A stretch of DNA of 6,640 bases from Candidatus Acetothermia bacterium (lineage in GTDB: Bacteria > Bipolaricaulota > Bipolaricaulia > Bipolaricaulales > Bipolaricaulaceae): the NCBI GenBank assembly GCA_003552425.1, contig PUMC01000090.1:1-6640 (forward strand), in the 5' to 3' direction. Shown here piece by piece: positions 1 to 5,621 of the stretch. Numbering within the stretch: the stretch's first letter is position 1; the number at the start of each line of letters is the position of its first letter. The notes under the pieces are model-generated. The model was not told the origin of the DNA. It saw only the letters and a list, made by a program, of their open reading frames with translations, and ran no database searches. The translations under genes were made by a program, and so were the position numbers.

Positions 1-14
1 ACCTGCTCACTCAT
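1..14 (-). CDS. Start of next gene in kaiC operon (partial; candidate kaiB)
   Basis: An ATG at 14-12 on the minus strand opens a frame reading Met-Ser-Glu-Gln before the window ends. It begins 8 nt past the kaiC-like stop codon. A GGGGTGA stretch about 9 nt upstream, overlapping that stop, could act as ribosome site. The spacing says the two genes are co-transcribed and probably translationally coupled. In many bacteria a KaiC homologue is followed directly by a KaiB thioredoxin-fold protein, so kaiB is the obvious candidate. That is inference from context: four residues cannot identify a family. A response regulator or histidine kinase would be the main alternatives. Confidence 0.5.
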
Positions 15-22
15 CACAGCAA

Positions 23-1762
23 TCACCCCATCTGTTCGTCCTCATCGTGGCTAATCTTGCGACTACGCTCCATGGCGGAGCGGTAGCCCGCCAGGCGTTG
101 CCGGCGCTCCTCCCTCTGGCGAAGCAGCCGCTCCGACTCCGCCTCGTTGGCGGCAAGCTCAGAGCGCAGCGCCTCCAACTGACTCTGCAAAGCCCGCCGC
201 TTGCGCTCCAGAGCTGCCTGCGAGCGCTCCAGCTCTTGCTCCATCTCCAGCGTTTGGGCCTGCTCGCGCGCCTCCTGCGCCAGACGGGCCGAACCGGTGA
301 GCACACCCTCCAGCCCCATGTAGGCCTCGATAAGCTGCACACCATTGTCCGTAAGCAGAAACTCGCGGATTTGATTGGAGTGCGCCATCCCGCGCGACTT
401 GATCACGTACAACCCACGGTTGCGCTCTCCACTGAGCTCGATCTCACGGAGGAGAAGCCATGTGTCGATCAGTGAGGAGATCTCGACCTCCGTGTGCTCG
501 ATCGCCGTTGTGGCCGAGGTCAGGTTGGTGAGGAGCATTGTGATCCCCTCCGACTTCAGGTAGTCGACCAACCGGACCAGCATGGCCTTGACCTCATGCG
601 GACTCCCAGAACCTTGAAACGCGGAGATGGGATCGACGATCACTACCGATGGTTGGAAGGCGTTGATCTCCTTAAGGGTGGTGGCCAAGTGCCCTTCAAG
701 TCCGTAAAGCGTGGGGCGCGCTGCATGGAGGCGAAGCAAACCTTGCTCCGTCCACGGCTTTAGGTCCAAGCCGATCGACCGCATGTTACGCAGGAACTGG
801 CTGGACGACTCCTCAAACAGGAAGTACAGGCACCGTTCGCCCTGACGGCATGTCGCGTCCGCGAAGTGAGCCGCTATACTGGTCTTTCCGGTACCTGCCG
901 TCCCAGAGACGAGTACGCTGCTGCCGCGGTAGTAGCCTTCCCCTCCGAGCATGGTATCCAGCTGCGAGATCCCAGTGGGGATACGTTCCTGCAGGCCTTC
1001 GTGCTCCAGCCCCAGGGAGGTCACCGGAAGCACCACGATCCCGTGCTCATCGATCATGAACGGATACTCGTTGGTCCCGTGCAGGGAGCCACGGTACTTC
1101 ATGACATGAAGCCGACGGGTGGACACCTGCTCGGTCACGCGATGATCGAGGACGATCACACAGTCCGAAACGTACTCCTCGATCCCGTAGCGCGTTAGCG
1201 TGCTGGCCCCGCTTTCGCCGGTGATCACCGCGGTCACACCCCGCTGCTTCAACCAGCGGAACAAGCGCCGCAACTCAGCCCTTAGGATAGCCGGATTGGG
1301 AAGGCCGCTGAACAGTGCCTCCAGTGTGTCGAGCACGACACGACGCGCCCCGATCGTGTCGATCGCGTGGCCCAAGCGGACGAACAGACCCTCAAGGTCG
1401 TACAGCCCCGTCTCCTCGATCTCGCTCCGCTCGACGTAGACGTGATCCACCACGAGCTTTCCCTCGTCCATCAACCCCTGGAGATCGAAACCGAGCGAGG
1501 CCACGTTCGCGGCAAGATCCTCGACGGTTTCTTCAAACCCCAGGAACACTCCCGGCTCGTTGTACTGAAGCGCGCCGTGCACGAGAAACTCCATGGAAAG
1601 GAGCGTCTTGGCGCAGCCCGCATTCCCGCAGACAAGCGTCGAGCGTCCAGCAGGGAGCCCACCCTGCGTGATCTCATCGAGGCCGCGTATCCCCGTGGGG
1701 GACTTGGGCAACCCGCTGCCGAAACCTTGCTCTACACACTGTTCCCGGTTCATCGACACCAT
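23..1762 (-). CDS. kaiC: KaiC-family dual RecA-domain ATPase with C-terminal coiled coil
   Basis: A 579-residue cytoplasmic ATPase with two tandem KaiC/RecA-like domains. Domain I (about 20-245) has Walker A GNAGCAKT at 46-53, the paired catalytic glutamates E77-E78 (FEET) and Walker B Asp145. Domain II (about 260-485) has Walker A GTAGTGKT at 287-294, E317-E318 (FEES) and Walker B Asp377. In cyanobacterial KaiC, domain II autophosphorylates at S431/T432, with T426 nearby. The aligned segment here (TEVEISS, 424-430) keeps hydroxyl residues at all three positions: T424, S429, S430. The domain I Walker A has Ala51 where Gly normally precedes the lysine. Residues about 491-570 form a charged heptad-like coiled coil in place of KaiC's short KaiA-binding tail. 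The frame is open to an ATG at 1891, but those extra 43 residues have no KaiC character. ATG 1762 begins just before the family homology and follows a purine-rich GAGAAGGGAG; ATG 1753 is an alternative. The gene follows the XRE-MEDS gene on the same strand and precedes a gene 8 nt away. Family assignment is firm; a true circadian role is not established. Confidence 0.93.
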   Translation of the reverse strand: MVSMNREQCVEQGFGSGLPKSPTGIRGLDEITQGGLPAGRSTLVCGNAGCAKTLLSMEFLVHGALQYNEPGVFLGFEETVEDLAANVASLGFDLQGLMDEGKLVVDHVYVERSEIEETGLYDLEGLFVRLGHAIDTIGARRVVLDTLEALFSGLPNPAILRAELRRLFRWLKQRGVTAVITGESGASTLTRYGIEEYVSDCVIVLDHRVTEQVSTRRLHVMKYRGSLHGTNEYPFMIDEHGIVVLPVTSLGLEHEGLQERIPTGISQLDTMLGGEGYYRGSSVLVSGTAGTGKTSIAAHFADATCRQGERCLYFLFEESSSQFLRNMRSIGLDLKPWTEQGLLRLHAARPTLYGLEGHLATTLKEINAFQPSVVIVDPISAFQGSGSPHEVKAMLVRLVDYLKSEGITMLLTNLTSATTAIEHTEVEISSLIDTWLLLREIELSGERNRGLYVIKSRGMAHSNQIREFLLTDNGVQLIEAYMGLEGVLTGSARLAQEAREQAQTLEMEQELERSQAALERKRRALQSQLEALRSELAANEAESERLLRQREERRQRLAGYRSAMERSRKISHDEDEQMG

Positions 1763-1944
1763 GCTCCCTTCTCTCCGGCCCCACTCCGGGCATTCCCCCT
1801 TCGGAAAGGGCAGCGCCACACAAAACGAGAGAGAGCCGACACATCGACACCACGTCAATGTTACCGAGAAGCGTACCGCTGGATCCAGCAAAACCGTGCC
1901 ATTGGATGGAACGGGAAGGGCATTCCATGCAGCAATCCGCCGAT
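1763..1944 (-). other. Intergenic spacer between XRE-MEDS gene and kaiC
   Basis: This is 182 bp between two same-strand genes. I see no convincing -35/-10 pair: a TTGACG on the minus strand near 1855 has no matching -10 at 16-18 nt. There is no hairpin followed by a T run, so read-through from the XRE-MEDS promoter is plausible. It contains a 12-bp perfect palindrome GCTGGATCCAGC at 1878-1889, a small hairpin CCCTT-TCCG-AAGGG (minus) about 40 nt upstream of the kaiC start, and a 9-bp direct repeat GGGCATTCC at 1788-1796 and 1918-1926. None is strong enough alone to be called regulatory. Confidence 0.5.
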
Positions 1945-2787
1945 CTACACCGAAGAGGGGGAACTCTCCAACGGCAGGTCCAGGTTCGCTGCTTCCAGAA
2001 TCCGAATCGCCGTCGTGAGGTGGCGGTCTTCGTGGAACGGGTTATCCACAACACCCTGCGGTACGACAATCCTGGGCTGCAGTTCGAGGAGAAGCCCTCC
2101 AAGCATGGGGTCTCCGAGCACCTTGGGAGGATAGACAACAAGGGCGCGGTCTTCACCGTGGATGTGGTAGAAGACATCGACCGATCGGTTAACCACGATC
2201 AGCTTCTCGACAAGGCGCTCAACATCGCGGAGAGGACGCAGATCGATCAGCCAGCGCACACGCTTGAACCCGGCTTCGCGCGCAGCAAGATCGGCGGCCA
2301 CCATGTCCGAGACAGCGACCTTCGGACGGAACATGGCCGGTTCGTTCCCCCACACACGGCAGAGCGGGATCCTCACAATCTGGTCCGCCTCGATCGCGGC
2401 GGACCACTCTCCATCGTCGACCGCGAGTTCGGCCAGCGTGTCCTCGAAGCGGCCTTCGTCGGCGCAGGCAACGGTTACCCTGTCCCCACGCTCCAGTCCC
2501 TGCTGCAGGTACATCCCCACAATCGGGGACCCATGATCGCTGAAGAAGGCGATCTTGCCAGGCCCTTCCAGCGGGGCCACCTGCTCTGTGTGAATCCAGG
2601 CGTCGAGGTTGGTCGCGTAAGCAGCATACTGCTTCGAGATCTCCAGGAGTTCACCGAGGCTCGGCCGGGCAAGACCGCGCTCCCAACGCGACAGCGTCGT
2701 CCAATGGATGCCGAGCAGGTAGGCGAGGTCTCCCTGGCTCATCCCCATGCGGCTGCGGATGCTCCGGATCCAGCTGCCGAATGCCAC
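1945..2787 (-). CDS. XRE-family HTH regulator with MEDS-type sensory domain
   Basis: A 280-residue predicted transcription factor. Residues about 5-60 form an XRE/Cro-like helix-turn-helix (MSQGDLAYLLG at 16-26, then TTLSRWERG at 30-38 with the recognition helix). Residues about 75-250 resemble the MEDS domain known from DcmR-type regulators of one-carbon metabolism. The visible MEDS features are a core beginning near FFSDHGSP (81-88), LQQGLERGDRVTVACADE at 94-111, a hydrophobic strand ALVVYP (215-220) and the closing PRIVVP...DNPFHE segment (238-253). MEDS domains are predicted small-molecule sensors; the ligand here is unknown. The start is GTG at 2787, fixed by a near-perfect Shine-Dalgarno AGGAGGTGA 3 nt upstream (AGGAGG core 6 nt from the start). 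It is first in the direction of the kaiC-like gene and divergent from a ribbon-helix-helix gene. It may regulate that shared region or the kaiC operon. The HTH call is very secure; the MEDS call is from pattern memory and good but unverified. Confidence 0.88.
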   Translation of the reverse strand: MAFGSWIRSIRSRMGMSQGDLAYLLGIHWTTLSRWERGLARPSLGELLEISKQYAAYATNLDAWIHTEQVAPLEGPGKIAFFSDHGSPIVGMYLQQGLERGDRVTVACADEGRFEDTLAELAVDDGEWSAAIEADQIVRIPLCRVWGNEPAMFRPKVAVSDMVAADLAAREAGFKRVRWLIDLRPLRDVERLVEKLIVVNRSVDVFYHIHGEDRALVVYPPKVLGDPMLGGLLLELQPRIVVPQGVVDNPFHEDRHLTTAIRILEAANLDLPLESSPSSV

Positions 2788-2790
2788 GGC

Positions 2791-2799
2791 TCACCTCCT
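2791..2799 (-). promoter_or_regulatory. Near-perfect ribosome binding site for XRE-MEDS gene
   Basis: On the minus strand AGGAGGTGA ends 3 nt before the GTG start at 2787. This matches the complement of the 16S anti-SD tail along nine bases. It decides the GTG start and predicts high initiation, unusual for a regulator that is often made at low level. Confidence 0.85.
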
Positions 2800-2814
2800 G
2801 GCGCGCCCGTTTCC

Positions 2815-2844
2815 TTGACAACGGGTTCGCAGTTGCAATAGTAT
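2815..2844 (+). promoter_or_regulatory. Candidate sigma-70 promoter for the ribbon-helix-helix gene
   Basis: A consensus -35 TTGACA (2815-2820) is followed after 18 nt by TAGTAT (2839-2844, 4 of 6 to TATAAT). An overlapping TATAGT at 2842-2847 is a better -10 but 21 nt away. Transcription would begin near 2851, giving a leader of roughly 87 nt before the ATG at 2938. The -10 overlaps the first operator-like repeat, so binding there would be expected to block this promoter. On the opposite strand TATACT (2845-2840) could serve as -10 for the XRE-MEDS gene, but I find no good -35 for it. Confidence 0.45.
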
Positions 2845-2882
2845 AGTACTTGTGCTATCCATGGTATAGCATACGCGCTATA
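2842..2882. repeat. Tandem operator-like repeat, TATAG-N8-CTAT twice, 23 bp apart
   Basis: Two interrupted palindromes lie in tandem: TATAGTACTTGTGCTAT at 2842-2858 and TATAGCATACGCGCTATA at 2865-2882. Each has TATAG facing CTAT across 8 nt. The copies start 23 bp apart, about two helical turns, and 13 of the first 18 aligned bases (from 2841 and 2864) agree. Conserved positions are concentrated in the half-sites, as expected for protein recognition. The second copy is also nested in GCATA-N7-TATGC (2869-2885). It sits between two divergent DNA-binding-protein genes, over the candidate -10 boxes. Autoregulation by the ribbon-helix-helix or XRE protein is inferred. Confidence 0.6.
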
Positions 2883-2937
2883 TGCACGACCCGTACCCCG
2901 GTTTCTAAAGAGACCGTACACAAGTAAGGAGACGAGG

Positions 2938-3123
2938 ATGCCCGGACCTGGAACCACAACGAAAACGCTTGACAAGATCTCTATCTACATCCCGCAGAAG
3001 AAGGCAGAGCAGGGTGTGCTGCAACGACTGCGCAAGCTGGGCGAGAAGAAGGATCGCTCGATCAACTACATGGTGGTCGAAGCCATCCTGCACTACCTGG
3101 AGCGCGAAGAGAAGAAAGCTTAG
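2938..3123 (+). CDS. Ribbon-helix-helix (Arc/CopG-like) DNA-binding protein
   Basis: A 61-residue protein and the only plus-strand gene. Residues 12-18 (DKISIYI) look like the DNA-contacting beta strand. Residues about 23-36 form the first helix, and 40-57 (RSINYMVVEAILHYLERE) match the second helix of the Arc/CopG/MetJ fold, including the Ser-Ile-Asn turn typical of the family. Such proteins bind DNA as dimers, often cooperatively on tandem sites, as repressors, antitoxins or plasmid copy-control proteins. The ATG at 2938 follows AAGGAG with 6 nt spacing. No toxin-like partner lies downstream: the gene ends 70 nt before a terminator. A lone transcriptional regulator therefore fits better than a type II antitoxin. 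The tandem TATAG-N8-CTAT repeats upstream are a natural candidate for its operator. Confidence 0.85.
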   Translation: MPGPGTTTKTLDKISIYIPQKKAEQGVLQRLRKLGEKKDRSINYMVVEAILHYLEREEKKA

Positions 3124-3193: not shown

Positions 3194-3228
3194 AACCGGA
3201 GCCAAGAAGCTCTTTGGCTCCGGTTTTT
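3194..3228 (+). terminator. Rho-independent terminator of the ribbon-helix-helix gene
   Basis: A perfect 12-bp stem, AACCGGAGCCAA (3194-3205) with TTGGCTCCGGTT (3214-3225), encloses an 8-nt loop. It ends in a TTTTT run at 3224-3228. It lies 70 nt past the stop codon at 3123. The T run is only on the plus-strand side, so it mainly stops plus-strand transcription. On the minus strand the same hairpin lies about 13 nt beyond the tRNA 3' end and might act weakly for that transcript. Confidence 0.9.
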
Positions 3229-4514: not shown

Positions 4515-5411
4515 CTAACCGGCGGTCTCGATCCTCAAGTTGTAACGGATGTTCCCTTCGGTCTCCCGCACCAAGCGCAACGCCCAGTCTCCGTCCTGAT
4601 CAGCCCTGTACGAGAGTTCGAGGGCACCCTCACCGCGCACGCTGGCCGACAACGTGCCGTCCGGTGCCACGAGCTGGAGCGCGCCGCTTCCACCGGTGAA
4701 CGTGATCTCCAAGGCGATGTGCTCACCCCTGATCAGGGGAACGAGGTACCGGCGCGTTTCCTCAACGATCCCGCGGTCCCGAGGAAGGACGCCGGTGCGC
4801 TCGACCGGTGCGTCGACGTCACGCACTGTCAGAGGCCCTCCTACCCCGAGGGCAGTTCCCCCAAGCGGGGACTCGTGAACCGTCGTCGGGGGGGGAAACT
4901 GTGCCATGCGCCCTGCAGTTCCCACGTCCACTGCCGGGCAGCGCAGGCGTACCGAGTGCTCCGTGATCCCAAGCACCTGCTGCCAATGGGTGCGCTCCAG
5001 CCTTACCTCGAGGCAAGTTCCTACCCGTAGGGCCCTGCGGGAGACCACCAACTGTCCGGCGTACGCGAAGTAGTCCTCTCCGTTGCGCATCAACGCGAGC
5101 ACCACCCGGTGCGTTGTCGACGGGCCGCCCGTGGGCCGTAGCCGCACAAGTGTGCTCTGCGTCGCAGCTGGCTGCTCACCCCGCACAGCCGGCACGAACA
5201 CCAGCACATCGAAGACAAGGGTGCTCATGTCCAGCGGAATACGGTGGAACTGGAACCGCGCATAGTGCCCGTCCGCCTCGAGCCAGTGCCCTGGCTGATC
5301 GGAGGCACTCACGCAGTAGTAGGCGTCGCTGTAGATCCACGCCGCCGTCCCGGCAATCGAAACCGCCAACACCGCACACACAACCGTCGCTGTCTTCCTG
5401 AATAGCCTCAT
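4515..5411 (-). CDS. Membrane-anchored/secreted protein with PPC-like C-terminal domain
   Basis: A 298-residue protein I do not recognise as a named family. Residues 1-7 are basic (MRLFRK) and 8-27 hydrophobic, giving an uncleaved anchor or signal peptide; AGTAAW near 20-25 could allow signal peptidase I cleavage. The body is beta-rich and largely soluble, so it is probably extracytoplasmic. Residues about 222-295 resemble the bacterial pre-peptidase C-terminal (PPC) beta-sandwich: LIRGEHIALEI, then LQLVAPDGTL, ELSYRADQDGDWALRL and a final tyrosine-containing strand RYNLRI. Three cysteines (C33, C133, C158) lie beyond the membrane segment. ATG 5411 is preferred because GAGGGG is about 8 nt upstream; ATG 5417 has the same purine run directly abutting it. 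It precedes threonine synthase by 12 nt, an unexpected partner that may be only shared transcription. The secretion call is strong, PPC moderate, function unknown. Confidence 0.75.
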   Translation of the reverse strand: MRLFRKTATVVCAVLAVSIAGTAAWIYSDAYYCVSASDQPGHWLEADGHYARFQFHRIPLDMSTLVFDVLVFVPAVRGEQPAATQSTLVRLRPTGGPSTTHRVVLALMRNGEDYFAYAGQLVVSRRALRVGTCLEVRLERTHWQQVLGITEHSVRLRCPAVDVGTAGRMAQFPPPTTVHESPLGGTALGVGGPLTVRDVDAPVERTGVLPRDRGIVEETRRYLVPLIRGEHIALEITFTGGSGALQLVAPDGTLSASVRGEGALELSYRADQDGDWALRLVRETEGNIRYNLRIETAG

Positions 5412-5621
5412 CGCCATCCCCCCTCAAGGCTGCGTTGAACGCTCGTAATGCCACAGCTACTGTGCGGGAGCGTGTGATCTGGACAAAGGGTCGACGACCG
5501 CTTGAGAGAGGAGAAGGGCGAAGCGTGTAGGGGGAACACGGCCCCATGCCTAGGGGTAGAACGGAAGGTCAGGGGTGCGACACTGGCGCGACTAACAGGA
5601 CAGGTGTCCCTCCGCGCTGCG
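5412..5621 (-). other. Intergenic region between uppP and the PPC-like gene
   Basis: About 210 bp with no supported gene; open frames here are short and lack a ribosome site or family character. A perfect short inverted repeat CACAG-CTA-CTGTG at 5452-5464 lies about 40 nt upstream of the PPC-like start and could be an operator, but is small. On the minus strand TTGTCC followed 17-18 nt later by CAGTAG is only a weak promoter match. Just past the uppP stop, GGACA-GG-TGTCC (5598-5609) has too small a loop and no T run to be a good terminator. Confidence 0.4.

What the first reader, a model, noticed from the sequence alone, without database searches (positions are those of the whole stretch)
1..3123. 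KaiC-type ATPase module with two different DNA-binding regulators
Seen: a dual-RecA KaiC homologue, an XRE HTH fused to a MEDS-like sensor on the same strand directly upstream, a further gene starting 8 nt after kaiC, and a divergent ribbon-helix-helix gene sharing the control region. KaiC homologues outside cyanobacteria usually sit beside kaiB and histidine kinases. Pairing with a MEDS small-molecule-sensor-type regulator would suggest a ligand-gated or metabolic-state-gated KaiC system. Functional coupling is inferred from layout only.
Basis: partly seen in the sequence, partly recalled or inferred. Interest (0 to 1): 0.75.

Follow-up and report, generated by a model that had tools for sequence, protein, structure and literature searches.

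The report
KaiC-fold repressor beside a clock operon
In an uncultured bacterium, a DNA-binding protein whose sensor half is a worn-out copy of the clock-protein fold sits just before a clock-like gene set, but comparison with relatives suggests its usual partner is a small neighbouring regulator gene and that the clock genes joined later in one lineage.

The parts
1945..2787 (-). XRE-MEDS one-component regulator, 280 aa, GTG start; HTH about residues 3-55 and KaiC-fold MEDS domain about residues 70-252 (2032-2580)
23..1762 (-). kaiC, two RecA-like domains, KaiC2/Rhodobacter type, C-terminal extension aligned to the coiled coil of 8DBA (about 23-290)
1..14 (-). start of the next gene, inferred kaiB (ATG at 14, MSEQ), 8 nt after the kaiC stop
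   Evidence: window ends here
2938..3123 (+). 61-aa ribbon-helix-helix-like gene of a multi-copy phylum family
2815..2820 (+). -35 box TTGACA of the RHH promoter
   Evidence: an equivalent box in 9 of 9 loci compared
2839..2844 (+). -10 box TAGTAT of the RHH promoter, 18-nt spacer
2843..2858 (.). operator-like palindrome 1, ATAGTACTTGTGCTAT (one mismatch), overlaps the RHH -10 box
2866..2881 (.). operator-like palindrome 2, ATAGCATACGCGCTAT
3194..3225 (+). intrinsic terminator-like hairpin after RHH (13 pairs), making RHH likely monocistronic
   Evidence: 1 found in the region, 1.4 expected in shuffles, so only position and stem length speak for it

Best explanation
XRE-MEDS is a one-component repressor of the DcmR kind. 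An N-terminal XRE helix-turn-helix binds TAGC-N6-GCTA palindromes that overlap the -10 box and start of the divergent RHH gene, shutting that promoter (and, where the two genes are divergent, perhaps its own). The C-terminal MEDS half is a KaiC-fold domain that has lost the ATP-binding loop; binding of an unknown small ligand there would release the DNA. RHH, a short DNA-binding protein, would carry the signal on. In the window's lineage a KaiC2-type kaiC-kaiB-kaiB-PAS gene set, probably acquired by gene transfer, sits downstream of xre-meds (gap 182 nt to the first kaiC ATG) and may be read from the xre-meds promoter, so the same signal could set the dose of the Kai proteins. Shown: gene order, absence of a P-loop motif, the palindrome and its co-occurrence, distribution in the phylum. 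Predicted: the fold. Inferred: which protein binds the palindrome, repression rather than activation, ligand, read-through, transfer.
Against: No binding data. Two XRE-MEDS copies have no palindrome within 300 bp upstream: G001 C17, where RHH lies 1.3 kb away and has it, and G002 C29, whose 9-kb contig shows neither RHH nor palindrome upstream. The xre-meds promoter is weak by consensus (8 of 12 in the window). Profile comparison of the XRE-MEDS family with KaiC found nothing (hhalign probability 0.2); the kinship rests on predicted fold and on the literature. MAG incompleteness may hide kaiC copies. No tree was made for the transfer.
Confidence: 0.57

Rival explanations
1. The palindrome belongs to the RHH protein, which represses its own gene; XRE-MEDS is only a neighbour.
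For: RHH proteins often autoregulate (recalled). In the ten XRE-MEDS contigs the palindrome was found only upstream of RHH; it is absent at the two xre-meds genes without a divergent RHH neighbour, and it also stands before a distant RHH gene in G001.
Against: 33 of 34 other RHH genes examined lack it although many share the same DNA-contact strand; a palindrome with about 11 bp between half-site centres suits an XRE dimer (recalled).
Confidence: 0.25
2. A true clock module: XRE-MEDS and KaiC act together, the regulator sensing a ligand or the KaiC/KaiB state and setting kaiC expression.
For: Same strand, short gap, no promoter or terminator found between; order kept in G001 with kaiB-kaiB-PAS following; the sensor half has a KaiC-like predicted fold.
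Against: Of 9 phylum copies with a readable downstream side 1 has kaiC; 4 have nitroreductase, 2 KsgA, 1 aconitase, 1 a sigma-70 factor. The 65% relative P0003 sits on a 24,243-base contig and none of the 120 listed KaiC hits shows that contig length (indirect).
Confidence: 0.15
3. kaiC is an unrelated neighbour with its own unrecognised promoter in the gap.
For: The gap is long for an operon, and a stretch just before kaiC is well conserved with L001 (76% mean column identity over the whole aligned piece); kaiC looks acquired.
Against: No sigma-70-like promoter on the minus strand there.
Confidence: 0.3

Closest known systems
KaiC of Rhodobacter sphaeroides (PDB 8DBA, 8FWI; KaiBC hourglass clock, PMC10076222)
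   Same: Two RecA-like domains aligned over query residues 15-567, paired serines at the phosphosites (S428/S429 of reference 26-1759), C-terminal extension aligned with the coiled coil, kaiB next
   Different: Host is Acetothermia/Bipolaricaulota by its relatives; XRE-MEDS gene upstream; window copy has Ala for a Gly of the CI P-loop kept in ten aligned relatives
DcmR of Methylobacterium (MEDS is named after it; called a repressor in the dcmRABC cluster, PMC12750041 passage)
   Same: Regulator with a MEDS sensor, called a repressor
   Different: XRE helix-turn-helix here; proposed target is an RHH gene, not a dehalogenase; ligand unknown
iKaiC (inactivated KaiC) domains of archaeal signalling proteins, including MEDS (PMC5847659, table passage)
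   Same: KaiC-like fold without ATP-binding loop used as a signalling part
   Different: Joined to XRE instead of response-regulator or kinase domains, and bacterial
CopG/RelB-type ribbon-helix-helix proteins
   Same: Short strand-like segment followed by two helices
   Different: Below the curated cut-offs; no toxin gene beside it; multi-copy lineage family

Membership tests
KaiC2 / Rhodobacter-type KaiC | two KaiC domains | tested here: met
   PF06745 two stretches, PRK09302 740 bits
KaiC2 / Rhodobacter-type KaiC | two adjacent serines at the phosphosites | tested here: met
   EISSLIDTW aligned to LSSLMDGW of 8DBA; KaiC2 homologues display two serines (PMC5520375 passage)
KaiC2 / Rhodobacter-type KaiC | C-terminal coiled-coil extension | tested here: met
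   sequence alignment with 8DBA to query residue 567; not tested by fold
KaiC2 / Rhodobacter-type KaiC | kaiB in the same gene cluster | tested here: met
   two KaiB genes in L001; in the window only the first 14 nt are visible
KaiC2 / Rhodobacter-type KaiC | ATPase, autokinase, timing | not testable with these tools
   needs protein
MEDS (PF14417) | profile score over the curated cut-off | tested here: inconclusive
   window copy 28.5 against 29.8; relatives 37.6, 45.2, 29.9
MEDS (PF14417) | KaiC-like fold without a P-loop (iKaiC) | tested here: met
   predicted fold only; motif absent in 12 of 12
DcmR-like ligand-responsive repressor | binds operator, released by a small ligand | not testable with these tools
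   operator only predicted
Ribbon-helix-helix / CopG | profile score over cut-off | tested here: not met
   12.8 and 19.8 bits against 20.5; single-sequence model pLDDT 67.9, two helices in the expected places
Type II toxin-antitoxin (RelB-like) | toxin gene beside the antitoxin | tested here: not met
   RHH is followed by a terminator-like hairpin and a tRNA gene on the other strand; RelB-like model 21.6 against 50

The most novel reading that the evidence does not exclude
XRE-MEDS is a transcription factor grown out of the KaiC fold that, in this lineage, contacts KaiC or KaiB directly and turns the state of a KaiBC timer into transcription without a two-component output.
Probability: 0.06. 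Interest if true: 0.85.

Novelty: new variant of a known kind. Interest (0 to 1): 0.42.

Why it matters
It gives a degenerate-KaiC (MEDS) regulator a candidate operator and a recurrent target gene, which makes the DNA-binding half of this domain class testable with two small proteins and a 60-bp DNA. It also records a KaiC2-KaiB-KaiB cluster in Acetothermia/Bipolaricaulota, a deep-branching phylum of mostly dark habitats (recalled), where it is rare. If the regulator were tied to KaiC it would bear on the open question of how KaiBC timers outside cyanobacteria reach transcription.

Tried and rejected
Profile-profile comparison of the XRE-MEDS family with KaiC gave no match. RHH as a TA antitoxin: no toxin neighbour. 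PADLOC scan gave HTH matches for XRE-MEDS, none for RHH and one P-loop match for KaiC. Scan of viral contigs with KaiC: no relative. A wider regulon: the short strict form ATAGC-N6-GCTAT was found in 30 of 100 genomes, and the reversed control matches about as often, so the short form is not informative by itself; the longer form is. In G001 one strict match lies on C366 near a contig end after an outer-membrane-like gene and was not explained. RHH structure from a single sequence was poor and was not searched. Literature: no paper held both 'MEDS domain' and 'XRE family'; 'kaiC' with 'Bipolaricaulota' gave one paper, seen only in the listing; 'acetothermia' with 'circadian' gave two, seen only in the listing. 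These searches cover open-licence PMC only.

Papers seen: passages only of PMC5847659, PMC10076222, PMC5520375, PMC8784404 and PMC12750041; other papers only as listings.

Rows dropped before counts: one search had 24 of 100 genomes with a match; 16 of them matched the HTH part only and are not counted as XRE-MEDS. Duplicate loci of one place were dropped (listed in the script). Of the RHH matches (the list was cut) 42 distinct places were examined: 8 near XRE-MEDS and 34 others.

Full report
What is there. The minus strand of the window carries, in order, a 280-aa regulator (2787-1945), a 579-aa KaiC (1762-23) and the first 14 nt of a further gene. The plus strand carries a 61-aa gene (2938-3123) followed by a 13-pair hairpin with a T run (3194-3225) and, on the minus strand, tRNA-Ile. 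Further up the minus strand lie a threonine-synthase-like gene, a 300-aa gene without a Pfam or NCBIfam match, and bacA. No genome is held for the window; its nearest relative found is an Acetothermia MAG contig, L001, with 75% identity in XRE-MEDS, 91% in KaiC, 90% in the threonine-synthase-like protein and 93% in RHH.

The KaiC gene set is ordinary. KaiC scores 740 bits to PRK09302 and its best solved relative is the Rhodobacter sphaeroides KaiC with its coiled-coil tail. The paired serines of the phosphosites are present, as in KaiC2 (passage of PMC5520375). In L001 kaiC is followed by two KaiB genes (91.5 and 89.9 bits) and a PAS protein cut by the contig end, so the gene that starts at window position 14 is almost certainly kaiB. 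Among 100 held genomes of the phylum this KaiC type is in 1 and KaiB over cut-off in 2; six other genomes have two-domain KaiC-like proteins of at most 33% identity, and the remaining matches are short stretches. This pattern fits acquisition by gene transfer; no tree was made and MAGs are incomplete.

Neighbours. Ten XRE-MEDS copies were found in 8 of 100 genomes. The upstream side can be read in nine: a divergent RHH gene adjoins it in seven (G001 C90, G002 C28, G031, G030, G018, G003, G040); at G001 C17 RHH lies 1.3 kb downstream in convergent orientation; at G002 C29 no RHH is seen on the 9-kb contig. The downstream side can be read in nine: kaiC at G001 C90; nitroreductase in G030, G018, G039 and G040; KsgA in G002 C28 and G031; aconitase in G003; a sigma-70 factor at G001 C17. 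P0003, 65% identical, sits on a contig of 24,243 bases and none of the 120 listed KaiC hits shows that contig length, which suggests no close kaiC beside it (indirect).

The palindrome. In nine loci compared (the window, the seven with adjacent RHH and G001 C17) the RHH gene has a -35 box (TTGACN or TGGACA) 17-18 nt before a TANNAT -10 box, and the palindrome begins in the last bases of that -10 box. In the window and in G001 C90 the first palindrome has TAGT in its left half and a second, perfect one lies 23 bp on. In G030, G018, G003 and G040 two palindromes overlap by sharing GCTAGC. Of RHH genes examined, 8 of 8 with XRE-MEDS nearby have it and 1 of 34 others has it, that one in G001. Many RHH genes without the palindrome carry the same DKISIYIP strand, so the palindrome tracks XRE-MEDS rather than RHH sequence. 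Against this, the two xre-meds genes without a divergent RHH neighbour (G001 C17, G002 C29) have no palindrome upstream, so RHH remains a candidate binder. Position over the -10 box argues for repression. The counts are of related genomes and are not independent.

Reading. The evidence favours a local one-component repressor with a degenerate KaiC-fold sensor, whose commonest target is a small RHH gene, and which has different genes behind it in different lineages. The kai set stands downstream in one lineage and may share the transcript, since no minus-strand promoter or terminator was found in the gap, but nothing ties the two functionally.

Noticed in passing
window 1604-1627, minus strand: The CI-domain P-loop of the window's KaiC reads GNAGCAKT: Ala replaces a Gly that the ten aligned relatives keep. 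It could be real or a sequencing error.
   Followed up: partly
phylum of G001: The RHH family is multi-copy, up to 13 matches in a genome, in 62 of 100 genomes, with a nearly fixed core; its role is unknown.
   Followed up: partly
L042, L043, L045, L046: In four genomes a nitroreductase gene follows XRE-MEDS directly, overlapping or nearly overlapping its end: a recurrent pair that may hint at a redox ligand.
   Followed up: partly
L038 6273-7475: At G001 C17 a sigma-70 factor gene lies between XRE-MEDS and the palindrome-bearing RHH gene.
   Followed up: no
G095 C14:72513-74596: A more distant KaiC-like gene (33% identity) lies beside a KaiB-like match (35.1 bits, cut-off 27) in another genome of the phylum.
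   Followed up: no
window 4515-5417, minus strand: A 300-aa protein with no Pfam or NCBIfam match.
   Followed up: no
L046 and P0126-P0131: The predicted proteins start MLYYSVDI, at an ATG inside the palindrome and next to the -10 box, so these starts are probably too far upstream.
   Followed up: partly
window and L001: XRE-MEDS is 75% identical between the two while its neighbours are 90-93%, so the regulator evolves faster than its surroundings.
   Followed up: no
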